A DNA stretch of 64,000 bases from Paramacrobiotus metropolitanus (Eukaryota > Tardigrada > Eutardigrada > Parachela > Macrobiotidae): NCBI RefSeq assembly GCF_019649055.1, contig NW_026570227.1:1054001-1118000 (forward strand), written 5' to 3'. The translations under genes and the position numbers were made by a program. Shown piece after piece: positions 11,997 to 48,961 of this stretch; the stretch's first letter is position 1, and each line of letters begins with the position of its first letter. The notes beneath the pieces are model-generated. The model was given only the letters and a program-made list of their open reading frames with translations. It was not told the DNA's origin and searched no databases.

Positions 11997-12011
11997 CGGA
12001 CAAGTAAGAAC

Positions 12012-14999: not shown

Positions 15000-16898
15000 A
15001 TGAGCAGTGAGACTTAAACGGGATAGCGTTCGAGAAAGTGTCGTTGCCTAACACGAAACTGCCTTCGACTCGCAAGGATGGTGATCGTGTTTCTCTAAAC
15101 AATTTACCGTCGAAGGACAATAAAGCTTTGGTTAGGCGTTTTTCTGGTGGATTCGCGGCTGTGCAGACGGTGCAGGTATTTCATATAAAATTCCAGATGT
15201 GCCGTCGCTTGACCAGATTAGTTATGGGTACTTCACGGGTTGATCTGTTCATTGAGCTAAACAGGTACTAAGTTAATGTAATTGGAAGGGTATAATTCGG
15301 GAGGTGTCAATAAATCAGCATTATCCAGACTGTTGCTTACAGGCTGGCAGTGTGGCCGAGGATCTCGTGAAGGCCTTCCTGGGTGCCAACCAGCGCGTGC
15401 TGCGGAAGGTGCAGAGTGTGTCGAACGGGAGGCGGCTGTTGGAGATCTGTGAGGGATACCGAGCGGAAGTCTTCGCCTTGCTCGGCAATAAACTGCCCGA
15501 TTTAGCGGCTTCGAGGACAGCAGCGGCATTGCGGGACGCAGTCACACCCCCTGTTCCTTTACACTCTGGTTTCCATTTTCCTCTGGTAAGTTTTCACCTG
15601 GTATTTTAGGCTTAACGACGCTTATTTTCTGAAATTATCTGGGCATAATAACAAAACTAGTTTCCCCAGTTTTTGTTCGAAATTCGACGCAATGCTTATC
15701 CTCTACGCTTGGAGCCTCGGACTTTCATATATCTAAACAAAAACAAAACATTCAAAAATACGGTAAAAACCTACTAAATAGGTTCTTAAGCTACTCGTAT
15801 TAAAACGGTGTAAAACATAATTCATAAGAATAATACTGCAGAGCCTAAAATTAAGTAACTAGGACCCGTCAGCAGTAATACTATCTGTAGGTGGCAGAAT
15901 TACTATTTCAGTAAGGTTCGGTCTACGATCTTAACTCTTAAGCAACAAATCACATATAAAACTCAGAAATCGGTTTCGATACAACATGATTAGCCAAGAT
16001 GCTGAACCAGCAATTTTCTTGTAATCTGCTGGTGCTGCATTTGTTACCATATACCACGATTTGCGATTAGGTGATCCGACTTGAACAGTTGTGTCTTTTT
16101 TTGCTTTTGGTCTTTTTTGCTCGGATCTTGGTGTCAAGCTCATTCCTCTCCATAGCTGGATTACTATCTTTTTTGCAGGTTGCCATACACCGGAAGTTGG
16201 GAACCGCTAGTAAAATGACGCACGAACAGTAAGTCACCTTTTTTAAGCATTCTTTTTATTCGGCAGTGGCCATCTCTTAGATTAAAAAGCCAGCGCTGGT
16301 ACACACTAATTAAAATGATAGAAGTGGATTCACTTTTTGTATTTCGTTGTGACTGAATAATAAGTTTGCTCTTTGCAGTAGCTGTTCATGTTCTTTTCTG
16401 ATATGGGTGTCATGCGAAACCCCCCAAACATTATTCTCGTTTTCGAAAGATCCCTTCTCCGCATCTCTTCACGCTGAAATTTTTTACGAGCAGCCTTGTT
16501 AATTTTTTTTGGTTCTGATTACGAAGATAACGCTTCTGTTGGTAGTGTAAGCTACAAAGCGAAATGCGACCATGATAATAATGATTGATTACGTTGGTGG
16601 GCATGATCAGGATAAGAAAGCTTACGTTTCTGTCATTATTAACGAGGAATCTGATTCAGCGTTGTAAGAAACGTGAAAGGGTGCTTAAAAAGCGAATGCG
16701 AGGAACGGTGCATGGAAGACACTGATTTCGTTCAGAAATGTCCTCACGCTCTAAATTCAACGTTATAACACTATTGCAATTGATATTGGGTAGACACCGG
16801 GCGTACTTGGAGACGCTAACCGTGGATTCACTGCTGAAGAACACGCGCGCTGTCTTAGACCAGTACGCTGATGAACCTCCGGTGTTTCCCAAAGTCTG

Positions 16899-17036
16899 TG
16901 TCACGAAGTAGGGAATAAACAGTAATATTTATTTGGTACGCGCGCGCTGCTCTACTGACTGAATCGATCAACAATATCTTACAGCATGGCAGTCGTTGCT
17001 AGGTAAAAAGGTCATGCAATACTGCACGGCATCACA
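16899..17036 (-). repeat. 138-bp LTR of the Gypsy fossil
   Basis: On the minus strand it starts TGTGATGCCGTGC and ends TTCGTGACA, i.e. TG..CA ends. It is preceded by a purine-rich tract (17037-17051 region). About 45 bases of the same LTR start are seen at the opposite end of the element (19170-19214), identical over that length. Confidence 0.75.
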
Positions 17037-19214
17037 CCTCCCCCAGTGGGGAAACCCACTCAAAACAACAGTAACTATTTGCCAAAATTCGGATCTTCTA
17101 TTAATCTCGGCGTTAATCGTTGGCCTGCGTTGCTTCTGGCAGTTTTACGCAGCTCTGGTTCCGGTTGTTTCGGGGGTGGTATTGCGCGCTTCTTCGGTGG
17201 TTTACTCGGCGGTAACTTCACGTCGGTGGCGGCCGGTTCGACAGTGAGCTCCGTTTTCGGTGTCACAGCCGGTTGTTCGGTTGTGGCTGTTGCAGGCGGT
17301 TGCTCCGTCTGTTGCCTTGCGTCGGGAACCACACTGTTGCCGCGGGGTATGTTGTTTCCGGTATTCACTGGCAATGCAACCGGTGCGGGCAGTGAGGAAT
17401 CCGCCACCTGTCGCTCATCCGGCTGCAGCCAATATCTCGGTCGGATCTGGTTAAAGGTGTCTGCGCCAGATGGCGCCTTCGACAGACACTTCCCATATCC
17501 GGGTGCCTTCACGTCTGACCAGCCGGCCGCTGGTCCAGTCGACAGTTCGGTTGAGACGGTAATCGCGAACCATTACCAAGTCGCCAGGCGTAAAACTCTT
17601 CCGCTTGGTGCGCTTGTCGAAATTGTGCTGGTATCGTTGGCGGTTTCTCTCCGTATGTGTGAACATAACAGGGGACAACAGGTCGAGCTGAGTACGGAAC
17701 TTTCTACCCAGGAACAACTCCGCTGGCGACTTTCCGGTTCTTGCATGCGGCGCGCCTCGGTATCTCTAGAGGAACTGCCGCAGTGCTTCGGACAGGTTCT
17801 TCCGGTCAGCCATGAGTTTCGCAACTCCGTCCTTGATGGTCTGGACATACCGCTCCGCCTGTCCATTCGATTGTGGGTGTCCCGGTGGTGTCCTGAGATG
17901 CTTTATCCCGTGTTCCGCACAGAAGTTTGCGAACTCCTGTGACGTAAACTGGGTGCCGTTGTCCGTAACGATTTCGGTACAAGCGCCGTACCGACTGAAC
18001 AGGTTGCGCAAAGTTTCCAACACGCCATCGGATGTAGCGTGTTTCATTTGCGCCACTTCCGGCCATTTGGACATGGCATCGACCACCAGCAGCAGCATTG
18101 TGCCGTGGTATGGACCGGCAAAATCCATGTGCAACCTCATCCATGGGCTTTCGGGCACTTCCCACTGCGAGAGCGGTGCTTCGGCCGTTTCCTTAGCGCG
18201 TTCCGAGCAGATCCGGCACTCACGAGACATGTGCTCGATGTCTTTATCCATCTGTGGCCACCAGCAATAGGCGCGTGCCTCGCCTTTCATCTTACCGGCT
18301 CCCATGTGCGCTTCATGCAGGTAGTCCAGTATCTGCCGACGCTGCTTGACCGGAATTACCGTGCGCGATCCCCAGCAAATGCAGTTGTTGGTCAGCACCA
18401 ATTCATTCTCTAGTCGTTTGTAGGGACGCAACCGCTCATCAACCGTGGCCGGCCATCCATGCAGGATGTAACCGTGGACCGTGGACAGATCCTGGTCTTC
18501 GGCGGTTGCTTTGGCAATGGCTTCTGCTTTGACAGGCAAGCGTGACACGTTGTCTTCGTGTACCGCATTTACCACTTTGTCCATTCCCAGCCCGCTCAGT
18601 CCATCCAGTTCGGTCGAATGGAGTGGCAGGCGACTCAGGCCGTCGGCTTGGCCGAAATCCTCGGTGCGCCGGTACTCGATTGAGAAGGAGTAGCCCATGA
18701 GAAGTAGTGCCCATCGCTGGAGTCGGTTGGCTGTCACGACCGGAACTCCTTTATTGCTTCCGAAGACACTCAGCAGCGGCTTGTGGTCCGTGCACAACGT
18801 GAATTCGCGACCAGCAATATACTGGTGAAATTTGCGGCAGCCGAAAACAAGGGCAAGTGCCTCCTTCTCTATTTGCCCGTAGTTCTTCTCAGCTGCGGTG
18901 AGTGTCCTTGATGCGTGCGCAATCGGTCGTTCCGTGCCGTCCGGGAACCGATGACACAGCACGGCGCCCACACCGTACTGCGAGGCGTCCGCTGCCAGGA
19001 CAAGAGGCATTTCTGGATCATAATGCACCAAAAACGTTGCCCGTACTATTTCTTCTTTGATGGCCAGAAACTGTGACTCGCATTCTTTGGACCATGACCA
19101 CTGCACTCCCGCTTTCAGCAGCTGGTGAAATGGACTGCATTTCGTCGAAAGGTCACGCACGTACTTGCGGTCGTTGCTAGGTAAAAAGGTCATGCAATAC
19201 TGCACGGCATCACA
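16899..19214 (-). mobile_element. Gypsy (Ty3-like) LTR retrotransposon, incomplete fossil
   Basis: On the minus strand the order is: end of reverse transcriptase, RNase H (with the usual DHKPL and ADGLSR wording), a zinc-binding HHCC region and an integrase core, then a purine-rich tract and a 138-bp LTR. Gag and the front of pol are absent, so the element is incomplete and broken. Its ends carry matching LTR sequence, identical where both are present, and a perfect 5-bp target duplication (GTCTG) surrounds it. Both points suggest a recent insertion. It lies antisense within exon 4 of family copy A. Confidence 0.85.
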
Positions 19215-19714
19215 GTCTGGCTGGTGGAGTGGTTGCAAGTGCTGCGCATTCTATTCCCGGAACCTGCTGGGTACGTGGTGGTTCTCACACATGGTGACTT
19301 TGATGGACTGGAGCTGGATTACGGAGCCGTCGTGACAGCGGATGCCAATCCCAAGGTGGTGCTGATCGTCAAAGGCTCCCCGGGTCTTTGGAGTGGCTTT
19401 GAAAGGGCCAATGGGCGCCTGCAGGAGTGGAACTTGGGGTATATGTCGCAGCAGATGCGGAACAACGGAGTCGCCTGTTTCCCCGAGCGCATGTTCTGGC
19501 TGTGTTTCCGCGGGGTGCACTGCGGTGTTGGATGGCAGGAGGGACAGACGTTTCCCCAAAGCTTCTGGCCAGGTCACCATGACATTTACCACGATGTGCG
19601 CAGCGACGATTCGGTCAGAAGACTATGTAGCTTTGCACAGCTGGTTGTGGAAGGGCGTATGAGTTTACCCTAGCCTAAATAAAGTTCTGTATTCGAAGTT
19701 AGGAGAAAGTTGTG

Positions 19715-20225: not shown

Positions 20226-20430
20226 AGACGCGCAAAACTTCGGTACTTCTACTCCGAAGGGCAGTCGCGGCGTGCAGTATGCAGCATGATAACGAAGCGG
20301 ATCGCACCAGGCGCTGAAAGCCCGGATAAAGCCCTCTTAACTGGCCGGCGATGCAGTTAGAAATCGGGTCCGCATGTTGAAGCCGTACACTGAGTTGAGT
20401 TGGTAACTTGGCACTTAATCGGTAGATCAT

Positions 20431-20570: not shown

Positions 20571-20723
20571 CTGTTTTCAACTAACAAACGTCGATGACTC
20601 AAATCGAATCATCAATGAAAAAAAAACAGTTTTCAAAACAGATTATGACATTTGAATCAATGCAAAAAGAGATGAATCAATGAATCATTTATTCGCACAT
20701 GCCTGCTGAGCAACTGGCCAGAT

Positions 20724-23351: not shown

Positions 23352-26300
23352 TTACTGATCGCGACCCCCAGCAGAAGCGACCAGTGTGCAAGAGGGGACG
23401 CCTGGGTCACCCTGCATCATTCTCCATGCAACCAACTGCGCGAAGCCACACAGCTCTCGCAGCGATTCATCGCGGCGCACATCGTGATAAACGTCATCTT
23501 CATGTGGCCAGACGCGTTGGGCAAACGCCTCTCCCTCCTGCCATCCGACACCGCAGTGCACCCCGTGAAAACACAGCCAGAACATGCGCTCGGGAAAACA
23601 GGCCACTCCGTCTTTGCGCATGCGCTTGGACATATCCCACACGTTCAACTCTTCGTGGCGCTCATCAATCCTCTCCATTCCCGGCCACAGGCCCAAGCAC
23701 CCCCTGACGATCAGCACCACTTTGGGATCGTAACCCGTCGTCACGACGGCCCCGTAAAACACCTCGATGTCGAAAAATTCACCTATTCCGTCCACCACGT
23801 CGTAGCCGGCCCACTCCGGGAACAGAATGCTCAGCACCTTCAGGTATTCCACCAACCAGCTGTAGTACCACATCGGCGGATGCACAGCGTAATGGTCCAT
23901 GATCGCGTTCGCGCGCGCCTTCTTCAGCAGTGACGCCACGTCTATGGCCTCCAAGTACTCCCGGTGTCTACGAAACCTTTATTAACCTTACTTCGGTATT
24001 TTTCACATAACTCGGTCCCTTTAAGTATGCTTTTTCGTATTCTGGTCACCCGGTACAAATTCTGGCAAATAAAGATACCAGAAATGAACAGTTTTCTTAG
24101 TAAAACTTCGCTCATTCATGAACGCATAAATCTGAAAAAATTTCCATGAAAAAAACCAAAAGAACAGGAACTTGACCGGGTGCAATGCAAAAGAAACGGT
24201 TTTCTACGTTTATAAATTTCAGAAATTTTATACTCCAACATTTTCCTATTGCTTTGATGACTACAGACCATGACAAACAAATCAAAATGACATTTGTGCG
24301 ATCAACAGTTATTCATGCATGTAGCGCGCCGCATGCGTAATGGTGTAAGACGTAAGTAACCGGCGAACAAAATATGAAACTGTACACTTAAGCCTTAGCG
24401 TGACCGAAATATGAGAAAACTCGAAGTATAACATACACTATTTCAACGAGGATCTTTTTTAAGAAATCACCATAGGAGCCGCATCTCGCACCCCATGCTT
24501 TACTCGAATATTTCCTGAAATATATTTATTACACTCAACTTCTCCCTTTCAGATTAACTGTGAACTGCGAATGCACTGTGACGCTCTAAGTCTTACAAAA
24601 TTAAGGTCGCGTATGAAAGGATCGCATTAGTACTGAAAAAACTTTCGCTTAGTGAAATTCAACTCGTAAATTATGCAAATGAACTTAAATTGTCTTGCGA
24701 AGAACTATCACTATCATGTCATCTAATCTACTACTTGAAACTGCCAATAAAATAACTAAACCGAAGGGAATCGACGAAGTGGAAAGTGGGAACTTATTCA
24801 ACTTACTTTTCGTGCATCGTCTCGTTGTTAATGCCTTCCAGCATCCGGTGTGTAGCAACCTGCAGAAAGGGTATCATCAGACGATGCGGCACAGTTCAGA
24901 ATTTCAGATCACAGGGACATATTTAAAAGAACCTCGGTGTCTGATGTATTAAGGGAAAAAAACAGTATAACGGCAGCCTATAAGGATGTGATCTGGCTCG
25001 ATCATTTGTAAATAGAAGTACAGATAAAATGAACTAACTGCTATCCCGTGCCGCCCAAGTGAGTGCTATCATTTGAAATTATCAAAAGTACCGTAGCGAA
25101 ATCAGGAAAAATTAGATTAAAAAATCAGACTAAACAAGCCATTTCGGTTTTTGTCGAATAAAAACATGAATGCTTACTAATGTAGGACGAATTGGTCTCA
25201 TAACCCCATACCCAGCATTCTGTACGCATGCGGTGCAGTGCACTTGTACTGTGACGACATCGTCACTAGCTAGTCGCACAGCACCGCCATTAGTCACCGG
25301 AAGGCGCGTGCAGGTATGCCGTGTACATTCCTGCGCGGTCATATCATTATTTTACAAGAGGTGTGATCGGATACACGCGCTTTATCCGTCCGCTTATCTG
25401 TACGATCAAACACTGCTCATTATTAATTTATTATTATTATTGTCCCACCAAACTATTCGAAAATTAGTTTTGGGTAATTTAGAAACTTATAATTTCAGTA
25501 ATATTTATTCTTTCAGGGGCGAATTTAAAGAGGGGGCACGGGGGCACGTGCCCCCTCCGGAATTTTCGGAAAAGTGGGTAATTCAAAAAAGTAAAGGGGG
25601 GAGTACTGCACTGAAAGAATTTACCGGCTTTTAAAAAAACTGCATAAACTGCTATTTTTTATTGAATTTCTAGCGATTTTTTCAGTCAAACCGTTTGTTA
25701 GCTTCGCGCTCCGCGCGAAAGTGCCTGAACAGTTCACGGTTTTCCACGAAGCGCACATGAGCAGGGCATACATCTTATTCTTTTATTAATAAACCATGTT
25801 TCTAAAGGAGTTTTATCAGAAACTCGTAATATTTCACTATTTTTATCGAATTTCTAGCGCTCCCAGGTATAAAACCATGCATTGGCTTCGCGCTCCGCGC
25901 GAAAATTTACGGTTTTTCACAACTCTGTACCGTACAGCATACTGCATTGTTGTTGTGCCGTTTAATATCCCCTGCATGCAGAAGAATTTCAATAACGTCT
26001 GTATTTAATTTTAATTAGTTTTACCTAATTTTTATATAATTTCTTGCAATTTCCGCGATGAAATCGTGTGCCGGCTTCGCGTTTCGCGCGAAAATTCACT
26101 GGTTTTCTGAACTCTGTACATAAAATATCGCAATGCTTTTTGCCTTTTGACTTCCGCGAAAAAAATCTCAAATTATTTCTGCTTTTTTTATTGAATTTCT
26201 AGTAATTTCTGCAGTGAAAATGTTCGTCGGCTTCGCGCTTCGCGCCAAAATGTCCATTTATAATGCAATGCTTTACTTGATATCTTGCTGTACCAACAAT

Positions 26301-28439
26301 TTTAATTCAATTCGTACTTTATATAAAGGTTTTTATAAGTTTTGCAGTAAGTTATCTTGCTTTCTTTGGGGTTCTTGGGTTCTCAGTGCCCCTCCCGCCC
26401 AAGCGAGTTAAATTCGCCTATGTTTTCTTTTATCAATAATTTATACTTTCATCGCAAAAAACTCAAACCAAAAAGGTAAAAATTACTTAAAATATAACAT
26501 ATATTATATGTTATATTATATTATTACATAATTATGTAGACTTTAATCTCTCAATATGTATACAGCGAGCTTCGCTCAAGTCGCTTATTGATCGCTGCTA
26601 TTTTGTCCCGTTTGCATGCGAGACTTTTGGCACTTGGTGCGAGGCCGGCATTGTTTCGTTAAAGGAGATTGGGAAAAAATTGTTCATGAGGACGGGCGAG
26701 AGTCGCTCCACTTGTTTTTTGTTTCAGCGTTTAAGCTTAGAGATTATGCGTGGTAATGCTATGAGTGTGTTGTGCACAGTCCCTTCTCATGTAAACTGGG
26801 ACAAATTCTTCATTTGATTGGTATCATTGAGCGAAGCTCGCTGTATACATAATTATGTTAATATTATACAATTATTGTTATATTACTAGATAATACAGTG
26901 TAATAATTATTATTATACAACATATATAATATAATATACTATAATAGTTTTTAATAATTTTTACTTTTTTTGTCTGATTTTATGAGATGAAAATTGAAAA
27001 TGATCGAACTCAGGGGCAGATCACATTAAAGTGATTTTAAAGCCAGATCACATTAAAAATGATCTTTGGCACAACTGCTATGGTTCAATCGCATCATGTA
27101 GCACGGCGAATATACACAAAACAGAGGCTGACTGCGCTGCGCCCACTTATCGGCCAAGATTAAATCAGAAAATAAACGGTCTACACCAACAAAAATCTGG
27201 AAAAAATCGGGGTTTACCACGGACAAATCCAGACCGTGGAATGCCGGAGTAAACAGTGGTGCTGCGTCGCGCATCGCAGCCGTTGTCCACAAATCCGCTA
27301 AATCGGGCAGAAGTTTCTTGCCGAGCAAAAAGGCAAAGATGTCCGCGCGGTACACCTCACACATCTCCAGCAGCTGCTTCCCGTTCGGCAGACGCTGCAC
27401 ATGCTGCAGCATGTGTTGGTTGGCATTCAGGAAGGCCGCCACGAGATCCGCGGCCACACTGCCAGCCTGCCAACAACATTACTGAAATATTATTAAAATA
27501 TTTATTAAAATATTTTACAGTTTAATCTGTTATACAACTTTATATAAACGTATTTATTAGAACAAATTTCCATTTTTTAATTAAATCACTGTAATTAATC
27601 TTACTTACGGCTATTAAAAGATTTTTTAGCACCGGAAAATCGATGCTACAATACTGTAGTTAAATCATTTATTGAAATAAATTCAAAGAACAATATTCTA
27701 ATGGTAATAATAATTACGAGCTCACAAGTGTTCCTTCTCGTCATAATGGAGCGGGATTTTTAAACATTTTAATTTTCCGTAGGCTACTAAGCGAAGCCAT
27801 TGGCAATTATGAAAATTTCTAGCAAAACGGTCAATTTACTCGTATAATTTTGAAATTACCTATACTGTTGTTAGTGTAGTACTACTAATTATACTGCAGT
27901 ACGGAAGATATAGAATTGTAAAATATTTATAAAATAAATAGAATAAATTGCAACTTTGTTTTATTTTCAACTTGTACAAGCAGATACCTTTTGATACTTA
28001 AATTTTAAACTAATTAATTAAATATTAAATAAACCGATAATAGTTACTCTGTAAATGATCGATTCTTCTAGAATAAATAAACCTGCTCTGTAAACGCGGT
28101 TTTAAAATTAAAAAATTTTTTATACGCCAAAGCAACGCAACCAGAATTTAAATCGAACAATTTATTTTTGTAATTTATTGCACAATCAGTCAATAATTAT
28201 TATACATTACTGGATCCCACATACAGCAGCAGAATTAACAATAAAAATTGTCGTGACAATCCGAAATTAGTTTCCATACGGCCATGAAACGGTATCGATC
28301 ATGCAGTCAGTGTCCTATAACGTTGCAATACCTGCAGAACGGCGATTCCACCCGAGAAGCTTCGAGCCACAGCGTTCTCCTCCCAATTCCCAAACTGTGT
28401 CTCACTCAACTCCTGGCTGGGTCTCCGCACGAGCGACAT
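23352..28439 (-). CDS. Unknown four-exon family, copy B
   Basis: The exons, in transcript order, are 28439-28332, 27466-27218, 24859-24807 and 23967-23352. Junctions have GT..AG and the family phases (0, 0, 2). Exon 1 is short (36 codons), keeping MSLVRRPSQELSETQFG and the conserved end FSGGIAVLQ but lacking about 24-27 middle codons. Exon 2 carries AADLVAAFLNANQHMLQHVQ. Exon 3 is the B/D type (HRMLEGINNETMHEK). Exon 4 is the GEFFD subtype and keeps ACFPERMFWLCFHGVHCGVG, but has EVFYGAV where most copies have a DYGAV Asp. Intron 2 has been filled with a hAT-like MITE (25514-26422) and a LINE scrap. No domain is known. It is transcribed divergently from copy C, the two start codons being about 500 bp apart. 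Confidence 0.6.
25514..26422. mobile_element. hAT-like non-autonomous element
   Basis: The left end reads CAGGGGCGAATTTAAAG followed by a GGGGGCACGGGGGCACGTG block, and the right end mirrors it (TTAAATTCGCCTATG). This is the familiar terminus style of hAT elements. The flanking octamers TATTCTTT (25506-25513) and TTTTCTTT (26423-26430) match at 7 of 8 bases, as expected for an 8-bp hAT target duplication. No transposase is inside; the interior is a tandem repeat. It sits in intron 2 of family copy B. Confidence 0.6.
25620..26300 (+). repeat. About 185-bp tandem repeat, four units
   Basis: The core GCTTCGCGCTCCGCGCGAAA (with variants) starts at 25701, 25885, 26074 and 26230, giving spacings of 184, 189 and 156. 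Each core is preceded by an ATTGAATTTCTAG-like stretch. The array fills the inside of the hAT-like element. Confidence 0.75.
26556..26850 (+). mobile_element. LINE 3'-end scrap enclosed by 24-bp perfect inverted repeats
   Basis: Between the repeats a frame reads FVPFACETFGTWCEAG, FMRTGESRSTC and QRLSLEIMRGNAMSVLCTVP. It matches the end of the LINE protein at 20724-22060. The sequences 26556-26579 and 26827-26850 are exact reverse complements, and AT-rich self-complementary runs (TACATAATTATG) continue outside them. Confidence 0.6.
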
Positions 28440-28943
28440 GGCGCTGTTCACTGCAACACACGCATCAAGAATTCAGCGTGGATAATTCCGTCAACATTAA
28501 CTTCCAATAGCGCTTATCCACACAATTCTCACTTACAGAATTAATCTAACTATTCAAAATGGTGCGTTTTCCCTTGACGAGAGACGCAGCACACATAAAC
28601 AGAATTTTCTGCAAGTCAGGAAGCCACAACACGCAGAACTGCAAAAGTGGAAAACAGAAAACTCAAAACTTCAAAAGTGACAAAATACATACAAGTTACA
28701 ACGGTTGACCGTTGACGGATGAGTTCGCGTTCGAAATGGCCCCGCAGTGCGGTTGGCCGGTTGCGCTGCTGCTGGCTGTATTCGGTTATGCGTTGTGCTA
28801 ATCGTATCGTTGTACTAATCGTATTTGAAGCTACACTTAATTTCTAATTGTCTATTGTTCAGTTCACTATCCTGAAAAGGGAACGACAGACAGTGCGAGA
28901 CTCGTTGCCCAAACTGTCTTTGTGTTTGCAGAAAAGCAACAGA
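28440..28943. promoter_or_regulatory. Divergent promoter region between copies B and C
   Basis: The two start codons face away from each other. A block around 28697-28760 (CAACGGTTGAC, then TGGCCCCGCAGTGCGGTTG) recurs in the D/E gap (34744-34808) and the F/G gap (43438-43502). A second block, near the minus-strand gene (CCCTTGACGAGAGACG at about 28572), also recurs in all three. The leader of copy C has a CAG acceptor-like site just before its ATG, so a 5' UTR intron is possible. Confidence 0.5.
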
Positions 28944-34506: not shown

Positions 34507-35249
34507 GGCGCTGTAACTGTTCACTGCAACACCCACGGTTTTCAGCGTAGTTTCAGCTTCCATCTTCCAATCACACTAAGCAGCTCGATTACCACTTATC
34601 TTACAGAGATTTAATAATCAAAATATAAGCGGTGGTTTCCGTCGACGGGAGACAAAACAATACTGAGTATTTCTATTTTTTTTAAGAACAAATCACAACG
34701 CGCCGAACTGGAGAGTGGAAAAGATTCAAAAGACAAAAGTGTCGAAACTGCATGTTACAACGGCTGACAGACGAGTTTTCCTTGCAACTGGCCCCAGAGT
34801 GCGGTTGTGCTAGATCGTCCCACAGCCTTGTCAACCGCCCTGCAGGACGAGTTGAAATGAAAACTCATTTTTCAACAGTTCAACCGTTGTGCAGTAGTAT
34901 GAAGTTTTCAAAAGTGAGCTTTGTCGCAGGTTTGTCGCATTTGTGGGTAAATCAGTACTTATATGTAGACTAATGTAGTTAGTAGAAACTTCCTCCAGAT
35001 AGAAACTTTTATTCAAGAAAGCTGTGTGCTGTGTGTGACAGTGTGTCCCTTCTCAACGAACACACACCTTAAAGGTAAATAAGTAAGAACGTAGTGGTAA
35101 GCGTTACTCGTGATCTCGTACACTCGTGTTTGGAGCTCCACTTCACGTCGTTTGCTGGATTTACTACGTATCCCGAAAGGTAACGACAGATGAGACGTGA
35201 TTCCAGCCGGAATAAAAAAAAAATCCATGTGTTTGTAGTGAGCAACGAA
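34507..35249. promoter_or_regulatory. Divergent promoter region between copies D and E
   Basis: It contains the shared block at 34744-34808 (CAACGGCTGACAGACGAG, then CTGGCCCCAGAGTGCGGTTG) also found in the B/C and F/G gaps, and the GTCGACGGGAGACAAAAC block close to the minus-strand gene. A GTTTGTAG acceptor-like site precedes the copy E ATG. Confidence 0.5.
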
Positions 35250-37753
35250 ATGTCGATCGAGCGGAGTTCCAACCAGGAATTGAACGAGAAACAGGATGCA
35301 AAACCGCAGTCCGACACGAATCTACCTTTTCGTCATGCGGACGACGACCGTGTTTCTCTGGGAAAGAAGTTCTCCGTGGAGGATAAAGCTCTAGCTAGAC
35401 GCTTTTCAGGTGGATTCGCGGCTCTGCAGGTATTCCCGTGATTTCATTGATGTTTGTCTTTGTTCATTTGCTAACCCGTCTTCTTTATTAATGTATATAA
35501 TTTGTAGTTCAACTTCAGGCCAATCAGTTAATGAATTATCACTACTCACTTATTTTAAGCTCTAGCAGTACGATTAGCAGCTTACCCTGAATTGTGTTCG
35601 CGGTGTTTTGGTACGACTAGACGAAAAAACTTCGCGTTTCTGGTTTTAGCAGATTTAGCAGGTTTTAGCAGTTTTAACAGATTAATGCTGATCTCAGCAA
35701 GCTGCAACTTGCATATTATTATTCCTCGCATAACCTGACTGTCATAACCCGTATTATCTACCCAGAAAAATTTCCTCGGAATCTGAATATGCAAATATAT
35801 ATATACGAAAACACTTAAATATTGTATATGAGATATGGAGTTTCTGCTTCTCACTAGCCATACAGATTTGGGTGTTCCTCGCTCGTTGTAATGGTTTTTA
35901 TTAGCGCAAGCCAGTTTCACTCACACAGAATATGAAGAGAACTCGTTGTAATTAGAAATTGCCTGAGAGTTATTTCCACTAATCGTATACCTCGTTCCAT
36001 TATGGAACTACCCAAAGACGCGTGCTTTTTTTTCTTTTTTTAGCGTGTTTTTTGTCTTCAAATTTGTGTATTGTGGCATTGATTTGACCAATAAAGTCCG
36101 TAAACCCAAAGACTCAAGGGTAAAACTCTTGAGATGCAACTCGTAATAAATTAACACTGTTTACAGGCTGACAGTGTAGTAGAGAACCTCGTGAAGGCAT
36201 TCCTCGGTGTCAACAAACGCGTGCTGTGGAAGCCGAATGGGAAGCAGTTGTTGGCTGTCTGTGAGGGATACGGCCTGGACGTCTTTGCCTTGCGCGGCAA
36301 GAAACTGCCAGATTTGACGGCTTTGTGGGCAGCAGCTTTGATGCGGGAGGCAGCAACATTTCTTGCTCCCATTTGTTCAGGGTTCGATCTTCCCCTGGTA
36401 AGCTCTCGCAGCGTAGGTCTGTGTAGCGGCGCTTTCTGGAAAGTACTTCCGCAAGGGTTCATTTATTCTCTGTACTCGTATACAGTATGTACGAGCTTGT
36501 CCCGTATTTTCTGACGTAAAGGTGCAGAATGCAGATTCACTAGCACGCATTAACCGCGAAGTTTGCGCTAAGGACGATTGCCACTCGTACCTTACGTCTA
36601 CGACAGTCGACAATGACAAACTTACTGTTAATTTAAGGGAATTATAAAGAAGAACGTTGTAGAGTACTGTACTGATATTCGTGCAGTAACTAGACCTCAC
36701 TCGGTAGCTACTTTAGAGTAGGCACGATTCATTTTTCAGGTTACCATGCACCGGAAGCTGGGAAGCGCCAAGAATATGACTCCCGAACAGTAAGTTTGCA
36801 ATTCCTACTTCGTTTTGTCACTTTTGTGCATGCTGTTCGTGTTTCGCCAGTCTGAATAGGTATACGTATTTAGATACGCCTACGCCTAGTATTAGCGTTT
36901 CTGGGCGCATGCGATCTCCTTCGCCGGGCCACCTTTCACGCTGAATTTATATGCGTTTTTGCTCGCTTTTTCGTTCTTAATAACTGTAAAATTAATTTCG
37001 AAAAATTGTAAAGCGTAATACGACCATGGTTTGCCCTCATGATTGATGCCTTTCGTGCGCATCAATCCCAAGGTTCAATAAAAACATGAGATTCAGTGAA
37101 TACGGACTAAATTAGAAAAATGTTTTTTTTCTCCTGATATGATATACAATTACTGGATCTTTCGTAGACACCGGGCGTATTTGGAGACCTTAGACGTGGA
37201 GTCACTGCTGCATAACACGCGTGCTATCCTGGACCGTTACGCTGTTCACGGCCCGTCTTTCGACTACGACTGGTTGGTGGAATACCTGAAGATGTTGAGC
37301 ATTCTGTTCCCGAAATGTGCCGGCTACGACGTGGTGGAGGACCTTGGTGAATTTTTCGACATCGAGCTGGATTACGGGGCCGTTGTGACGTCGGGTTGCA
37401 ATCCCAAAGTGGTGCTGATCATCAAAGGGTTCCTGGGCCGTTGGCGGGGGATGGAGAGGATTGGTGAACACCACCAAGAGCTGCACGTGTGGGACATGTC
37501 TAAGAAAATGCGGGCTGACGGAGTCGCATGTTTCCCTGAGCGCTTGTTCTGGCTGTGTTTCCGTGGGGTGCACTGTGGCTGTGGATGGCAAGAGGGAGAG
37601 GCGCTTTCCCAACGCTTCTGGCCACATGAAGACGATATTTACCACGATGTGCGCAAGGAGGATTCCGTTAAAGTGCTGTGTAACTTTGTACGGTTAGTTC
37701 TGGATAGAATGATGCAGTGTGGCAGGGGCGCAGTTGTCGATTCTGTTAAGTAG
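35250..37753 (+). CDS. Unknown four-exon family, copy E (intact)
   Basis: Exons 35250-35429, 36167-36397, 36740-36789 and 37168-37753 give a predicted 348-residue protein. Residues 1-60 are a polar N-terminus (MSIERSSNQELNEKQ) ending ARRFSGGFAALQ. Residues 61-137 are a helical module (VVENLVKAFLGVNKRVLWKP) of the short KPNG form, like copy C. Residues 138-154 are VTMHRKLGSAKNMTPEQ. Residues 155-348 are the main domain, of the GEFFD subtype but with an intact LDYGAVV and PKVVLIIKG, then ACFPERLFWLCFRGVHCG. Its exons 2-3 side with copy C and exon 4 with B and D, so it is mosaic. There is no signal peptide and no transmembrane segment. Function unknown. Confidence 0.7.
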
Positions 37754-39919: not shown

Positions 39920-42900
39920 TCAGCTACAAGTAAGGACAGTCGAAAACACTACAGCTTTTTCACCGTCATCAGCATAATAATTCTGCACCATTCTATCCAC
40001 AACCCCCTTAACAAAGCTGCACAGCATTCTGACCGAATCCTCGCTGCGCACGTCGTAGTAAATGTCATAGTGACCGGGCCAGAAGCGCTGGGGGAACGCC
40101 TCTCCCTCTTGCCATCCAACGCCACAGTGGACCCCACGAAAACACAGCCAGAACATGCGCTCGGGAAAAGAGGCGACTCCGTCAGCCCGCATTTTCTTGG
40201 ACAGATAAAACAGGTCCCACTCCTGCTGGTGCTCACCCGTCCGCTCGCGGCCAGACCACCGGCCCAGGAACCCTTTGACGATCAGCACCACCTTGGGACT
40301 GTAATCCGCTGTCAGTACTGCGCCGTAATCCAGCTCCGCGCCCAATTCAAACTCAGTGCGTCCGCTAAACACGACGTACCCGGCATTTCGCGGGAACAGA
40401 ATACGCAGCACTTCCAACCATTCCACCAACCATTCCTTGTTAGAAACCGGTCTCTCAAGAGCGTACTTGTCCATGGTAGCGCGCGTGTTCTTCAACAGTG
40501 ACTCCACGGTTAAGTTGTCCAAGTACGCACGGTGTCTACGAAACTTTTGTCGCAGAAATCAAACCAAAAAAAGTAGAAAATATTCTATGTTTACCAAAAA
40601 ATTTTCCAGTATCCTGGTAAAGCGTCTCCATTAAATCGTTATAAGTGGAAAACTTACTGTTCGTGCGTCATGATGTTAGCGCTTCCCAACTTCTGGTGCA
40701 GGGCAGCCTGCAAAAGGTGACTGTTTCAAGGCTTACCAGGGAAAAATCAGGACTTACGAGGGAAAAATCAAAAGCAGGGCAGACAGGAGCGGACAGTGGT
40801 GGTGCGTCGCGCACGGCAGCAGCTGTCCACAGCGCCGCTAAATCGGGCAGCAGTGTGCTGGTCAGCACGCCGAAGACGTCAACGCGGTATCCCACACAGG
40901 CATCCAGCAGCTGCTTCCCGTTCGACACACTCTGCACCTTCCGCAGCGCGCGTTCGTCGGCGCCCAGGAAGGCCTTCACCAGACTCTCGGCTACGTTGCC
41001 AGCCTGCACATACCAGTGTGGAGTTATTGATATTCTTTGAATCAACAGATTTCTTTCTGAAAAATCAAGCGAAAACTGACGGTAATACCTCGAACTATCC
41101 TCTGCCCCAGTAAGGTATAACAGTCAAATAAGTCAAACCGTCACTAAATTCCAATAAAATTATGCTTAATGAAAATAATTATAAACTGTTTCTTTCCCAT
41201 GATAAATGGAACGGAGTTTTCAGGATTTCGTATTTCAGGCGCAATCATTTGTAAATCACAGTGAATGAGAATAATTTTAAACAAAATCATTTATTTCTAA
41301 TACTTACTACTATTTCAACTCTCTATAACTAAAAAATTTTTGTGGCACCCTGTAAGAAGTTCTTTTATCTACCAAAAGCAACCAACACAAAGCAAGTACA
41401 GTTAAGACATTCACCAGGGCTCGGTCACCACCTCCCCCCTCAAAAAAATCTCGGTTTTTGTTTGGAGACAGAATAGATATGGGGAACACTTAAAAAAATA
41501 CTTTCATCGGCAATGGTCCGATAGGCGTGGCCAAACACGAATTTAATGGCTGACATTATTGCATGTATTCAGTATTGTCATTGCCGTAATGCTGTGCATA
41601 ATTATGGTGTTACAGATTACGCTGATAAATTTATTTTGCGAGTTGTGGTATCCAATATCCATTACCACTGTAGTTTTACTCCCTGATTGGATTTTGCTTC
41701 CTAAATCACTGTTTTGAAAAAGTAGCATTTTTAACGAATCTCGCCACGTATCAAGCTCTAAAATGCATGGAAATGCAGCACACGGTCTGCTCAGGTTTCA
41801 GTACAGTCGCCATTGGCAAGTTCGCTAACAATTTCAGTTTTTTAAAACAGTGAATTAGGAAGTAAAACAAATCAAGGAGTAAAACTACTGTGCTAATAGA
41901 TAACTCAGAACTCGCAAAATAATATTATCGGTGTAATGTGTAACACCATAATCATGTACAGCAATACGGCAATGGCAATACAGTGAAACTTCTCTACTAC
42001 GTACACCCTCCGTTCCTAGCTTCCTGAACGTTACAAAGAGGTGTACGTTAGGTAGGGGCACTGCCCCTAGGGGCGAATAATAACGCCCCCCCCCCCAGGG
42101 GTGAGTTATAATTCTGTCTGTAGCAACTAGCAAGTGTAGTTGTATATTTGTGTGGCCGGCATATTAAATCTTTTAGCAGCACTGCAATAACTGAGCTTCT
42201 CTGACTTAACGGCGTTAATGATTTCCAGCTTTTCCTCCAAAGAGAAGCTCTGACGCTTACGTTTAGCGTGCATTTTTAAACAGCTACAGTACCGTTACTG
42301 ACAGCTAAAGTTCCCAACTATGCATGAAGTGTTGTTTTTTATCGTTGGGCTGTTTTGCATCGCAAGATCCGGAATTGGACAGACTTAAAACTAGAAACCG
42401 GAAATTTCTTTGGAATTGTTGCTTCTCTTTCTTAGCCGGGTGTACGTAACGCAGGGGTTGAATGTACGTTAAATATGGTCTGCCGTTCCATGATAGGTGT
42501 ACGTTATACTTGTAGAGGGGTGAACGTTATACAGAGAACTGCCCCTATGTTATAATATGCCGGACAGTCCGGTTCCCAGCCGTACGCACATAATAAAGGG
42601 GTGAACGTTATAAAAGGGTGTACGTTAAGAGGGGTTTCACTGTACATGCAATATTGTCAACCATTAAATTCGTGTTTGGTCACGCCCACTGGACCATTGC
42701 CAAAGGAAGTCTTTTTTAAGTGTTCCCCATACCTATTCTGTCTTCAAACAAAAGATGATTTTTCTGAGGGGGTAGGTGGTGACCGAGCCCTGGTTAGTAT
42801 ACTAATTCAGTTAATTCGATCTCAGATAAGTGTCTGTCTGAGCAGTCCATAAATTAATATTATAAACTACTGGCTCATACACATAGAGCAACGAATATTT

Positions 42901-43168
42901 TTTAACGAGTTAAAATTTTCGAGGCCTTCGCAAACTGATTTCCGTCAAGGATCGGTTCACCCTGCTAATTTCGGAATACCTGCAGAACAGCGAATCCACC
43001 CGCGAAACGTCGCGCCACAGCGCTCTCCTCCCGTTCCACGGACGCCACGATGCCCACAGAATTACGGACACTATCCGGTCGACGAGAGGAAACCTTCGTG
43101 TCGGAAAACGACAGTTTCCCAAACTGTTTCTCGCTCAACTCCTGGCTGGGTCTCCGCACGAGCGACAT
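39920..43168 (-). CDS. Unknown four-exon family, copy F
   Basis: The exons, in transcript order, are 43168-42980, 41003-40758, 40707-40658 and 40535-39920, all with GT..AG and family phases. Exon 1 is MSLVRRPSQELSEKQFGKLS to VARRFAGGFAVLQ. Exon 2 is the long KVQS form (AESLVKAFLGADERALRKVQ). Exon 3 is unusual (AALHQKLGSANIMTHEQ). Exon 4 is the GRTEFE subtype (GAELDYGAVLTADYSPKVV), unlike the GEFFD subtype of the other minus-strand copies. Its first intron has been enlarged by a MITE that itself contains a pogo relic. The donor of exon 2 is duplicated, with a second, similar GTAAGC site about 21 bases further on. It is divergent from copy G. Function unknown. Confidence 0.65.
41981..42642. mobile_element. 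pogo-like (Tc1/mariner) internally deleted element
   Basis: The terminal inverted repeats CAGTGAAACTTCTCT and AGAGGGGTTTCACTG continue into ACGTACACCC on both sides. TA dinucleotides flank the element (41979-41980 and 42643-42644). Inside, a minus-strand frame encodes a CENP-B-type N-terminal helix-turn-helix, as in pogo transposases. The DDE domain is missing. Confidence 0.7.
42136..42273 (-). pseudogene. CENP-B N-terminal domain fragment of a pogo transposase
   Basis: From the ATG at 42273 the frame reads MHAKRKRQSFSLEEKLEIIN, then AAKRFNMPATQIYNY. This is the classic start of pogo/Tigger transposases (basic residues, SLEEKLEII, AAKRF). The coding similarity ends after about 46 codons. Confidence 0.7.
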
Positions 43169-44073
43169 GGCGCTCTTCACTGCAACCCACACACACTGTT
43201 TTCACCGCAGTTTCAGTTTCGAATATCCACATGACACTTACCAACTCAATCACCACTTACTGCCTTACAGAAAATTAAATAAGCAACCTATTCACAATGG
43301 TGGGTTTCCGTTGACGAGAGACAAATAGGTAAATCACTGTAAATGTTTCTCGAGGACAACAATTCACAACACGCAGAACTGGAGAGTGGAAAACACTGAA
43401 GTCACTCTGAGAAGTGTGACAAAACTGAAAACGGCGTGTGACAACGGCTGACAGAAGAATACTCGTTTTTACTTTTTTACTGGCCCCATAGTGCGGTTGT
43501 GCTACGTGCTAGATTCCAGCAGCGTTAAAGCACGACAAGACATGTGCGCCTGCCGCCTACCGCGGTGTACTAGGCAACCCCCGCAGTTTCGGTATTTTCA
43601 CGTATGTTTCCTTCGATTTTACTCGATCCGTTGCTTAAGTACTTAAAATTAAATAGTACTTACTTTGTCGAGCGGTTCTGTAACGCTATACTTCAGACGA
43701 GTACTTCTATAACTCAGATGAAAAGATGCGGAAAAATTACAAGATTAGAAACGAAAACTTTGTGGTAATGTAATAAGTAATAACTAGTAACTTGCAAGCG
43801 CTAGTATCTGTACATTACTTGATCGCAGCCGTACATTAACTGCGGCTAGATCAAAACGCTGCTTAACATTCGCCCGATTTCCACTGCCTGGGACACGCAT
43901 AGGGTAGCTTTAACACGCGTACCTCTAAACGCGTTTGAGTGATCTGATTCAAACTGCACTTGCAGTGTATTCCAAAAATCTCGTTTGGCTACATTGAGAT
44001 TTTGCGAAAATCCTTCAGCTTACTTATTTTTTTGACCTGCCTCTGCAGTGTGCATCGATTTGGACAACCCAAA
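43169..44073. promoter_or_regulatory. Divergent promoter region between copy F and the RdRP relic/copy G
   Basis: It carries the same two blocks as the B/C and D/E gaps: CCGTTGACGAGAGACAAA near 43305, and CAACGGCTGACAGAAGAA followed by CTGGCCCCATAGTGCGGTTG near 43438-43502. The similarity on the G side stops soon after this, where the other units would continue into exon 1 of the plus-strand copy. Confidence 0.45.
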
Positions 44074-44830: not shown

Positions 44831-45098
44831 GCGCGGGCACATTACATAACAGTGCTATGGCTATTTTACCCCAGTGTGGCAAAATAGCAGAAGGCTATTT
44901 TGCCCCGCACACTGGGGCAAAATCGCCAAAAGCTATTTTGCCACGAAGACTGGGGTAAAATAGCCACTTCGAAAATTTTAAACACTGAAAAAACGACAAA
45001 AATCTCTGTCCAACCGCGGTTAATAGGCAAATTACTCGATACCACCGTAGTATTAAATTTCCAGCGCGGGCACATTACATAACAGTGCTATGGCTATT
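44831..45098 (+). repeat. Direct repeat pair and CTGGGGNAAAATAGCC array
   Basis: A block of about 38 bases (GCGCGGGCACATTACATAAC and onward to GTGCTATGGCTATT) occurs near 44832-44869 and again near 45062-45098. Between them, units like CACTGGGGCAAAATNGCC repeat three times. The arrangement lies inside the gap between the two RdRP blocks. Confidence 0.65.
44870..45080 (-). mobile_element. LINE 3'-end scrap (minus strand)
   Basis: The minus frame reads NTTVVSSNLPINRGWTEIF and corresponds to the C-terminus of the scrap at 53533-53690 (GNCTTVSRTIPFNPR) and of the long LINE copy (GNATAVLSTLPFNPR). DNA similarity to 53490-53600 continues past the coding end. Confidence 0.45.
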
Positions 45099-46315
45099 GG
45101 CTAAACGTTGCTTCATAAAAGCAGTAGAACGAGCGAGCGAGTGTAATTATGATAGTGTCAAAGTTTTAATGTACGAGTATTAAAGGAATTTTTAATTTGT
45201 ACAAGCAGATGCCATTTACACTTTACTTTAGAAAAAACCCACGATCAGATCAGTATTTAAGTGTTAATAAAGTGCAAAAGCGAGTTTTAGTAAATTATAG
45301 TGTCGCTTTATACCAAAATTCAGAAAGGAAATTATGGAAGCGTAGTTAAATTAGAGAAACATTTTATTACCAATTAATCTTGTTCGATTAATGACTGTGC
45401 AGTAATGTAGGAGCTTCAATAACCCAACGAGCGTTTGTAATATTATTCAGTGAGCAAATACGTGTTCAGGTGGATCTCGCCAAGGCTCATGCAAAACGTT
45501 ACCCACGCTTCGAATCTCCGCTTCGACGATCGTTTGCTGGTACTGAGCGTCATCCAGATCCCTTACCGCGGCTTCAAAGGCGCCCTGGCCGTGAACCCGT
45601 CGATCACAACCGACGTGGTGTTCTGGAAGTGGCAGGACAAGTTCCCATGCGAAGACGACTCCTTCTGCGTCGTCCAGCCGTCAGGGGCTTCCCGACCGTA
45701 CATCTACGGCAAACTGAACCAGCAGATTGTCGCGCTGCTCTCGGCTTTGGGCATACCCGACGAAGCGTTGCTGGAAGTCCAAGAAGAGCACTATCAACGT
45801 CTGGAGGACATGTACAAGGACCCCGTGGTGGCTTTCAAGGTGCTGAGCGGTGTAGGCAAGCACGCGGAGGTCAGTGAACTCACCGAGAAAGGATTCAAGT
45901 CGAAAAAGGTTACTGATGCGCTGAACGTGGTTCGCCGTCACATCATGCACAAAAGCGTAAAGGAGAAGAACAACGGGGACAAGACGAAACTGAGCGTCGT
46001 GGTGGAAGAGTCCCGCTTCTTGCTCGCGGTGAACGATCCCAACGAAGCGGAAGACGGGCAGTTGCGGGAGGGGGAAGTGTACTTCGCCCCGAGCATCGAC
46101 GGCGTAGCCACGCCTCTCTTAAGGAAACTGGTACTGGTGCGGAATCCCTGTCTGTTCCCAGGGGACATCCTGCTGTGGCGGGCAACAGGATGTTCCCTGC
46201 TTGAACAGTTCCGCCGAAAAGCCTTCTAGCTTAATCGCTGTTTTGAACGGAACTTAGCGTCTTGTACCAAATTTGTGGAGAATGCGTGCCACCCTCGATA
46301 ACTCTCCCTTTGCAG

Positions 46316-48961
46316 GTTACCATGCACCGCAAGTTGGGAGGCGCTAAAAACATGACGCGCGAACAGTACGTTTCAACTTCATTTTATTATCAGTGTTCGT
46401 GTTTCTCTTATCTGCATGCACGTATCACTGCATCACGCAAACATTTTTTTAGCGTATCCCTTCTCCTTCGTTGAGAACACTTCACGCTAACTTTCTTACA
46501 AGCATTTTTCTTTATTAATGAGCATGATGTATGATCAAGGGGAGCGTTCGTGCATATCAGTCATGAAGGGCAGCAGGAGTTTCAGTGAATGTGTTTAGCG
46601 TTTACAAAACAAGAAAGGGTGTCTATTGTCAATAGAGTAAACTACAGAGGGTTATTCAACCAATGTGGACACTTTTTAAAACATTTCTGCTTAGCCGTCG
46701 CAAGCTCATTTTACTTTTTTAAAAATTTTATTAGGTAGCCACAACATCCAGTCATACTTTAAATTCAACCGAGTCAAGATTTCGTCATCCTGTAGCTCAG
46801 GAAAAAATTAAGTTTGTCCCCCCCATGTTGGCAACAGTTGACCAGTTGAGCTATAGGAAATGGATCCCCTTTATTCAAAAAATAATCTAAAATTTAGGTT
46901 TTGCCATACTCTATTGAAAACCTATCAGGGGTTTCGAACAATCATTTTTCAAAAGGAACTAGTTTTTCGATTGGCAAGCAGCATCGTTGTTTTCTCAGCA
47001 GTGCTCCCGGGATCACATCTCTGGTTCTGGATGACTTCTTCTTCCCTGCCAGGGTTGATCCGGGGAGCGTCTTTCTCGACCAGTGAACATTGTAAATGGT
47101 AGAGAAAGACTTGTTTTACAATTTTATTCTATGGAGGGACGAAAAGGATACCTATAGTTCCGTGCATAAGAATTCGCGCAATGAGCATGGCTCCTGCGGG
47201 TCTCTTCCTGTTTTTGCGTTTTTTCAAACCGTCCTACCACACGAACCCGCAATAATTTGAAATCGTTTTTGCTATAAAAAATATTCGGATCGCCGTTTCT
47301 AACAATTAAAACCATCCAGATTCGAAAAACAGACGATCCTTTTAAGGCCAGATAATCAAAAGCCAAATTTTGACTGGTCAAGGGGTAGAAGTCGGAGTCT
47401 TTTGGTCAACAGCCACTATGGCGAGCATTTTACAATGGATTTTCACCAAAATTTGCAAAAAACATCCAGACTAATTAGTCGTTGTACTGATATGCTTATG
47501 ACAACATTTCTCGTAAAATGAAATTTGTAAGGAATTTTTTTTCGAAGTGTCCACACTTGGCTGAATAACCCTCTGTACTGATGGTTTATGGTGGTGAATG
47601 ACCTTTACTGAATAGTTAACTCAGATGCGACGCTAACCCAATCGTTCTGCTAACGTTGACCTTTATGTAAACTGATTGAAGCTAACACTGCAACAACATC
47701 AAGGCTAAGAAGACATTCTAGAGAACACTTTCTAGACAAGATATTCCAGAGCTGCTAGCCATGCAAGATGACATTAATTCATTTACAAGAAGTTCTTCTC
47801 CCTCAAGCACTTCAGTGATTTCCGATCCAAAGTATGAAAGATGGGAGAACACGCCTTTAACTCAAAAGCACTCATAAACAAACCATGAGTCAACAATTTA
47901 TTGATTGTTTTATGAAAGATTAAAGTATACTTAATGTCATGTATTGTCATGCGTAGGAATCGTATCTTTATTGTATCGCACTGGTCAGGAAAACAACTGA
48001 AAGGAAACTGAGGAATCGTAACTAGAGAACAGGGAAAACACAAGAGAAGTTGCTAAGAAGACAAGGACAAGGGACAGAAATAGGAAAGTATTAGAAGTAC
48101 AATAAACACGTGAACTCAGTATACTACACTTAACACAATACTAATTGGCTGATACTTTTTGGCCACTTCCTTCCGTTGCAAACCACATCACAGTATGACT
48201 GTCCATACAAACTATACTTCAACCAGTCGTACTCGTGACACTATGTAAAATGAAACAGGAAGAGCGGTGTATCTAGTGGTTTCTTTTACAATATAATTAT
48301 TCATTAAATTCCATGTTAAAAGAATTAGCACGATACGCGTTTCATAGACACCGGGCGTACTTGGAAACCTTAACCGTCGAGTCACTGCTGCAGAACACGC
48401 GCGCTACTATGGACCGCTATGCTGTTGAGAGGCCGGTTTTCTAACTACGACTGGTTGGTGGAATGGTTGCTAGTGTTACGCACTCTTTTCCCGAGCAATG
48501 CCGGGTACGTCGTATTTAACGGACGCACTGAATTCGAACTGGGAGCGGAGCTGGATTACGGCGCAGTGCTGACAGCGAATGCCAATCCCAAAGTAGTGCT
48601 GATCGTCAAAGGGCTTCTGGGCCGTTGGTTTGGCCGTGAACGGACGGGAGAGCACCAGCAGGAGTGGAACTTGTTTTTTCTGTCCAAGAAAATGCAGGCT
48701 GACGGGGTGGCCTGTTTTCCCGAGCGCATGTTCTGGCTGTGTTTCCGTGGGGTGCACTGTGGTGTGGGATGGCAGGAGGGAGCGGCGTTCCCCCATTGCT
48801 TCTGGCCTGGTCACTATGAAATTTATCACGATGTACGCAGGGAGAATTCGGTTAGAGCGCTGTGTACCTTTGTGCAGTTAACTGTGGATAGAATGATGCA
48901 GCTGGACAACAGCGGAATGCGTTCCTTACCCTGGATTTCGCAGGCTAAGCAAGACTGTTAG
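46316..48961 (+). pseudogene. Unknown four-exon family, copy G (exons 3 and 4 only)
   Basis: Exon 3 (46316-46365) reads VTMHRKLGGAKNMTRE with an intact acceptor and donor. Exon 4 (48348-48961) begins correctly (HRAYLETLTVESLLQNTRAT) but has a one-base shift near 48440. After this the frame resumes as NYDWLVEWL and stays open to the end (GAELDYGAVLTANANPKVV; ACFPERMFWLCFRGVHCGVG), of the GRTEFE subtype. Exons 1 and 2 are absent; their place is taken by the RdRP relic. The intron between exons 3 and 4 hosts a mariner-type MITE. It is probably non-functional unless a fused transcript is made. Confidence 0.65.
46645..47575. mobile_element. Mariner/Tc1-type MITE, 931 bp
   Basis: The inverted ends CAGAGGGTTATTCAACC / GGCTGAATAACCCTCTG, extending to TGTGGACACTT, are flanked by TA on both sides (46643-46644 and 47576-47577). 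The interior frames on either strand show no DDE transposase signature. It lies in the intron of copy G. Confidence 0.75.

What the first reader, a model, noticed from the sequence alone, without database searches (positions are those of the whole stretch)
15000..48961. Unrecognised four-exon gene family in seven local copies
Seven copies share exon number, phases (0, 0, 2), a polar N-terminus ending RRFSGGFAALQ, a helical exon 2, a 16-17-residue exon 3 and a main exon 4 with ACFPERMFWLCFRGVHCGVG. Five have open frames over all exons (one with a shortened exon 1), two are broken. I cannot tie them to any known domain. Local expansion with mixed intact and dead copies is typical of genes under conflict or dosage selection. 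This is the best candidate in the window for an undescribed system.
Basis: partly seen in the sequence, partly recalled or inferred. Interest (0 to 1): 0.8.

Follow-up and report, generated by a model that had tools for sequence, protein, structure and literature searches.

The report
Orphan gene family in head-to-head pairs
Seven related copies of a protein-coding gene that matches no known protein family sit side by side in an animal-like genome, apparently duplicated as back-to-back pairs that have swapped parts; the genes are real, but what the protein does is not known.

Summary
Seven homologous copies (A-G) lie at 15.0-49.0 kb. Five (B-F) give open four-exon frames of 341-366 aa with GT..AG introns in phases 0, 0, 2. 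A lacks a usable start and carries a Gypsy LTR element in exon 4; G lacks exons 1-2 and exon 4 breaks frame. They are constrained genes: 44 of 44 pairwise gaps are in frame, introns have mostly diverged beyond alignment, whole-CDS dN/dS is 0.38-0.67 over 10 pairs, and the block around FPERMFWLCFRGVHCGVGWQE has pN/pS 0.07 with ordinary pS. No match in Pfam, NCBIfam, PADLOC, PHROGs or PDB was significant; no eukaryotic sequence collection could be searched.

New here: B-G form three head-to-head pairs with partly homologous spacers; B, D and F probably have a 5'-UTR intron; E and F are mosaics whose 3' parts come from the other subtype. Copies are old (dS 0.33-0.60), with no average sign of positive selection. 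IRG-type GTPase genes lie upstream and an apparently truncated RdRP gene lies inside the array. An innate-conflict role is my best reading, only inferred. A degenerate PD-(D/E)XK fold was considered and not established (AlphaFold pLDDT 41 and 39).

The parts
15101..19673 (+). copy A (broken): exon-1 remnant 15101-15175, exon 2 15343-15585, exon 3 16179-16228, exon 4 in two parts 16794-16898 and 19215-19673
   Evidence: tblastn; splice sites; no usable start in exon 1; LTR element in exon 4
16899..19214 (-). Gypsy-type LTR element inside exon 4 of copy A; begins TG, ends CA, 5-bp target duplication GTCTG; left LTR 16899-17036, only 48 bp of the right LTR found (19167-19214); pol (RNase H, integrase) 17766-19238 on the - strand
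   Evidence: Pfam; flank and LTR comparison
23352..28439 (-). copy B, intact, 341 aa: exons 28332-28439, 27218-27466, 24807-24859, 23352-23967
28440..28943 (.). spacer of head-to-head pair B-C (504 bp)
28944..31030 (+). copy C, intact, 363 aa: exons 28944-29126, 29703-29933, 30136-30185, 30403-31030
32002..34506 (-). copy D, intact, 364 aa: exons 34318-34506, 33823-34065, 33296-33348, 32002-32611
34507..35249 (.). spacer of head-to-head pair D-E (743 bp), homologous to the F-G spacer (74% over 224 bp)
35250..37753 (+). copy E, intact, 348 aa, mosaic (exon 4 after about 20 codons is D/B-like): exons 35250-35429, 36167-36397, 36740-36789, 37168-37753
39920..43168 (-). copy F, intact, 366 aa, mosaic (exons 3-4 C/G-like, switch at the exon 2/3 junction): exons 42980-43168, 40758-41003, 40658-40707, 39920-40535
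43169..43959 (.). upstream region of F in the damaged pair F-G, homologous to the D-E spacer; ends at the RdRP open frame
46316..48961 (+). copy G (broken): exon 3 46316-46365, exon 4 48348-48961 with a frame break near 48440; exons 1-2 not found; similarity to copy C begins at 46192

Best explanation
A lineage-restricted family of spliced protein-coding genes. Shown: five intact genes under purifying selection, strongest in one block of exon 4 (about columns 115-145 of alignment A1). Shown: two subtypes by exons 1-2 (B, D, F on the - strand; C, E on the + strand) lying head to head as B-C, D-E and F-G, with spacer sequence related between pairs. Inferred: the unit copied was the divergent pair with its promoter region. 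Shown statistically: E and F are mosaics of the two subtypes; inferred cause: gene conversion or unequal crossing-over, perhaps within the pair. Inferred function: an intracellular protein (low-complexity polar N-terminus, helical exon-2 part, alpha/beta exon-4 domain) that acts in cell-autonomous innate conflict, where several variant copies are kept and reshuffled, next to IRG-type GTPase genes. Odds: gene family, pairs and mosaics about 0.9; innate-conflict function about 0.35.
For: Open frames, splice sites; 44 of 44 gaps in frame; dN/dS 0.38-0.67 in 10 of 10 pairs; pN/pS 0.07 in the exon-4 core with pS 0.42. Exon identities: exon 1 of F is 90/85% to B/D but 74/71% to C/E; exon 4 of F is 79/77% to G/C but 70/68% to D/B; exon 4 of E is 81/78% to D/B but 73/71% to C/G. 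Breakpoint tests: 0 of 2000 shuffles for F (two tests) and E (two tests), while controls D and B gave 323 and 345 of 2000 (two further tests, C against E/F and D against F/E, also gave 0 of 2000, as the mosaics predict). Spacers: DE-FG 74% over 224 bp, E 6.5e-15, plus a 26-bp block at 96%; BC-FG 36 bp at 89%, E 7.4e-8. Neighbours: IRG-type GTPase at 5437-6378 (E 1.7e-64) and a fragment at 9206-9601 (E 8.8e-29).
Against: No functional assay, expression, or relatives. No average positive selection. BC-DE spacer similarity is weak (best E 5.8e-4), and spacer homology lies on the side of the - gene, so it may be that gene's own promoter, not a shared one. In exon 2, F is only slightly closer to D (77%) and B (73%) than to A (76%) and C (72%). 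Adjacency to IRG genes may be accidental. The window's organism is not known to me.
Confidence: 0.4

Rival explanations
1. An ordinary lineage-specific protein (stress, structural, reproductive or metabolic) kept in several copies for dosage or tissue-specific use; mosaics are by-products of tandem homology.
For: dN/dS below 1 in 10 of 10 pairs; a strongly conserved core; no positive selection on average.
Against: Copies differ by 25-40% in protein within exon 4 (identity to E 60-73%), more than expected for pure dosage; two of seven copies are dead.
Confidence: 0.35
2. The exon-4 domain is a degenerate PD-(D/E)XK (restriction-endonuclease-like) fold, as in Crinkler-type and fungal FunK1-type proteins, now a binding module.
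For: By eye, the order helix - strand - strand (ELDYGAVVT) - strand (PKVVLIVKG) - helix - hairpin (FWLCFRGVHCGVGW) - helix fits; the first AlphaFold model gives roughly that order. The highest query TM-score among the 50 rows listed is 0.23, with E. coli SduA, a nuclease of that fold by recall; E 2.8, not significant.
Against: Both models are unreliable (pLDDT 40.6 and 38.8) and the second lacks the hairpin strands; 0 matches at E <= 0.001 in three fold searches; no Pfam match; the catalytic Glu position is Ile in 7 of 7, the Asp is present in 5 of 7, the Lys in 6 of 7 (positions by eye); hhalign to the PD-ExK-looking ORF at 51173-51922 gives probability 0.1.
Confidence: 0.15
3. Toxin-antidote or other selfish gene pairs: the two divergent genes of each pair act on each other.
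For: Head-to-head pairs of two subtypes.
Against: Both members encode the same whole protein; exon 4 is exchanged across subtypes; nothing shows killing or rescue.
Confidence: 0.06
4. Exon 4 derives from a retroelement integrase.
For: A 29-residue alignment of copy B with the integrase zinc-binding region of the Gypsy pol in this window; with BLOSUM62, 0, 0, 0 and 1 of 300 shuffles reached the score for E, D, G and B, but 5, 11 and 24 of 300 for F, A and C; z up to 5.5.
Against: Best of seven window proteins tried; the His/Cys zinc ligands are not kept (by eye); Pfam finds integrase domains in the Gypsy ORF and none in exon 4 even at E <= 10; the window profile search gave E 0.59.
Confidence: 0.04

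Closest known systems
Tandem, taxonomically restricted gene families under birth-and-death evolution with gene conversion (general class, recalled)
   Same: Local array, intact and dead copies, in-frame divergence, mosaic copies
   Different: The copied unit appears to be a head-to-head pair; the protein matches no library family
IRG / interferon-inducible GTPases (PF05049), the neighbouring genes
   Same: Also present in more than one copy in the same window
   Different: No sequence relation: PF05049 was not reported for any family protein scanned
PD-(D/E)XK nuclease-like domains (Crinkler, FunK1, Shedu; recalled)
   Same: Possible order of secondary-structure elements
   Different: No profile match; catalytic Glu absent in 7 of 7; fold not established

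Membership tests
Protein-coding spliced gene family | Open frames across several copies, in-frame gaps, dN/dS below 1, canonical splice sites | tested here: met
Protein-coding spliced gene family | Transcripts with these junctions | not testable with these tools
   no RNA data
PD-(D/E)XK nuclease superfamily | Catalytic Asp and Glu-x-Lys | tested here: not met
   By-eye positions in alignment A1: Asp 5 of 7, Glu 0 of 7, Lys 6 of 7; rests on an unproven alignment
PD-(D/E)XK nuclease superfamily | Core fold | tested here: inconclusive
   AlphaFold pLDDT 40.6 and 38.8; no significant fold match
IRG / IIGP GTPases | Match to PF05049 | tested here: not met
   Not among the reported matches of five full-length proteins at E <= 1
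Retroelement integrase zinc-binding domain | Match to PF17921 and HHCC ligands | tested here: not met
   No PF17921 match in exon 4 at E <= 10; ligands not conserved (by eye)

The most novel reading that the evidence does not exclude
An undescribed animal innate-conflict family in which head-to-head pairs of variant genes share a control region and repertoire is renewed by swapping the 3' domain (exon 4) between the two members of a pair: pair B-C keeps two exon-4 types, pair D-E has been made alike in one type and pair F-G in the other.
Probability: 0.2. Interest if true: 0.7.

Novelty: new member of a known kind. Interest (0 to 1): 0.42.

Why it matters
It is a clean, checkable example of an uncharacterised gene family absent from current profile libraries, with old, constrained copies and reciprocal-looking exon exchange between subtypes. 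If expression or population data tied it to infection, it would add a new protein to the known kinds of animal cell-autonomous immunity; if not, it is one more lineage-specific family whose core domain has no known fold.

Tried and rejected
Led nowhere: own-genome search (no genome held); tRNA and Rfam scans, 0 hits each; viral contigs (46 pattern stretches, none confirmed) and prokaryote contigs (107, none confirmed), which hold no eukaryotes by design; plasmids by tblastn with exon 4 (one record, E 3), whose protein had a DUF6927 match and no confirmed relatives in a second prokaryote scan, so chance; both AlphaFold jobs and three fold searches. An attempt to fetch PD-(D/E)XK families for profile-profile comparison stopped for want of a genome handle, so that comparison was not made. 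Phages were searched only with the ORF at 51173-51922 (11 records, best E 0.5), not with exon 4. NCBIfam, PADLOC and PHROGs were searched with exon 4 only (7 members; weak matches with best E 0.021, none, 0.13).

Considered and rejected: chance open frames; a further divergent copy in the window; an integrase origin; a relation of exon 4 to the ORF at 51173-51922 (hhalign probability 0.1; pairwise z at most 1.0 over 7 rows).

Full report
What is there. tblastn with exon queries and profile searches of the window's six frames show seven copies of one gene: A (+), B (-), C (+), D (-), E (+), F (-), G (+). Spliced models of B-F have no internal stop and code for 341, 363, 364, 348 and 366 aa. Their 15 introns begin GT and end AG and range from 50 to 2358 nt. 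A and G are dead: A lacks a usable start and has a 2.3-kb LTR element in exon 4, starting TG, ending CA, with the 5-bp repeat GTCTG on both sides; G has no detectable exons 1-2 and a frame break in exon 4.

Why these are genes. In pairwise DNA alignments of the five coding sequences, cut before the variable C-terminal tail, 44 of 44 gaps are multiples of three. Of 18 intron comparisons (six of the ten pairs, three introns each) 13 gave no match at E <= 1e-3 and five gave only short ones of 19-55 columns. dN/dS (NG86) is 0.38-0.67 in the 10 pairs, with dS 0.33-0.60; by region it spans 0.27-0.89. Within exon 4, over all 21 pairs of seven copies, pN/pS falls to 0.19, 0.07 and 0.26 in the three overlapping windows that cover the FPERMFWLCFRGVHCGVGWQEG block, and is 0.37-0.84 in the other windows of more than one codon, while pS stays ordinary in the block (0.34-0.53). 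So the block is kept by selection on the protein, not by lack of mutation. The dead copies show ordinary pN/pS against the others (0.27-0.62), so they died late.

Arrangement. B-C, D-E and F-G lie head to head. The B, D and F exon-1 sequences are alike (85-90%), as are C and E (82%), against 71-77% between the groups. The D-E and F-G spacers are 74% identical over 224 bp on the side of the - gene, with a further 26-bp block at 96%; B-C shares a 36-bp block with F-G, and an alignment of all three shows a common GGCCCC..AGTGCGGTTG stretch about 280-315 bp from the - gene's ATG. I infer that the divergent pair was the unit of duplication. The homology does not reach the + gene side convincingly (C against E upstream: 23 bp, E 0.025), so a truly shared promoter is not shown.

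5'-UTR intron. All five intact copies have GCAG or GTAG ending 11-17 nt before the ATG; such a four-letter word occurs in 7.2% of random 12-nt stretches of the window. B, D and F also have GTAAG 97-100 nt before the ATG. An additional non-coding first exon in B, D and F is likely; C and E have only the acceptor-like site within the 140 nt looked at, so a longer UTR intron or trans-splicing is possible there.

Mosaics. F is B/D-like in exon 1 (90/85% to B/D; 74/71% to C/E) but C/G-like in exon 4 (77/79%; 68/70% to B/D), and its exon 3 is nearer A, C, G and E (78-84%) than B and D (68%). A maximum chi-square test puts the switch at the exon 2/3 junction; E switches from C-like to D/B-like about 20 codons into exon 4; each was tested against two parent sets with 0 of 2000 shuffles reaching the observed value. 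Controls D (B or C) and B (D or C) gave 323 and 345 of 2000. Tests of C (E or F) and D (F or E) also gave 0 of 2000, expected if E and F are the mosaics, but the test alone does not say which copy is the recombinant; that rests on the identities. F's intron 2 is only 50 nt and its first 19 nt match D's intron 2 (95%), placing the junction in or next to that intron. The nearest exon-4 relative of each mosaic is its pair partner (E-D 81% against E-B 78%; F-G 79% against F-C 77%), which suggests exchange within pairs, though the margins are small.

What the protein may be. Pfam scans of exons, consensus and five full-length proteins gave only sub-threshold matches (best E 0.014). NCBIfam, PADLOC and PHROGs scans of exon 4 gave nothing meaningful; PDB profile searches with exon 4 and exon 2 gave 0, a single-sequence PDB search gave E 1.1 at best. 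AlphaFold with seven sequences failed (pLDDT 40.6 and 38.8) and fold searches on these models gave nothing at E <= 0.001. The element order of exon 4 recalls a PD-(D/E)XK core, but the Glu of the motif is replaced by Ile in all seven and the second model lacks the hairpin; I treat this as a lead only.

Setting. Introns, a Gypsy element, an IRG-type GTPase (5437-6378, E 1.7e-64) and RNA-dependent RNA polymerase exons (43960-44583 and 45450-46229) mark a eukaryote, probably an animal; the species is not known to me. The RdRP frames match profile positions 14-88 and 169-413 of 582 and lie where G's exons 1-2 would be; similarity of G to C resumes at 46192, so the RdRP looks cut off there, though I scanned only the long open frames. 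IRG proteins and RdRPs are linked with cell-autonomous defence and RNA silencing by general knowledge, which is why I favour a conflict role, at about 0.35.

Verdict. A real, constrained, uncharacterised gene family with an interesting pair-and-swap history. The 'conflict' reading is plausible but not shown, and the absence of a known domain is only as strong as the libraries searched, which for eukaryotes means Pfam and PDB.

Noticed in passing
window 5437-7184, 9206-9601, 11883-12296 (+): IRG-type (IIGP) GTPase genes: a long open frame at 5437-6378 (E 1.7e-64), a fragment at 9206-9601 (E 8.8e-29) and a doubtful fragment at 11883-12296 (E 0.0065, below the cut-off) that overlaps an exact 154-bp tandem duplication (12051-12358).
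   Followed up: partly
window 43960-46229 (+): RNA-dependent RNA polymerase (PF05183) exons that appear cut off where copy G begins.
   Followed up: partly
window 51173-51922 (-): 249-aa open frame with an IPDLALL...LLVEAKN stretch that looks like an intact PD-(D/E)XK motif; no Pfam match over a cut-off.
   Followed up: partly
window 21020-22057 (+): 345-aa open frame resembling, by recall, the C-terminal part of a non-LTR retroelement; no Pfam match.
   Followed up: no
window 60186-61091 and 62965-63744 (+): Open frames with weak GDSL-lipase-like (E 0.0036) and JmjC-like (E 0.0002) matches, both below the curated cut-offs.
   Followed up: no
window 38176-38862: Near-perfect palindrome: 343-nt arms, 85% complementary, 1 nt apart, between copies E and F.
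   Followed up: no
window 3007-3801 (+): Open frame with weak rhodopsin-type and nematode Srbc-type receptor matches (E 0.0017 and 0.005, below cut-offs).
   Followed up: no
window 25655-26252: Four dispersed copies of a 69-nt repeat with 156-189-nt spacing, inside intron 2 of copy B.
   Followed up: no
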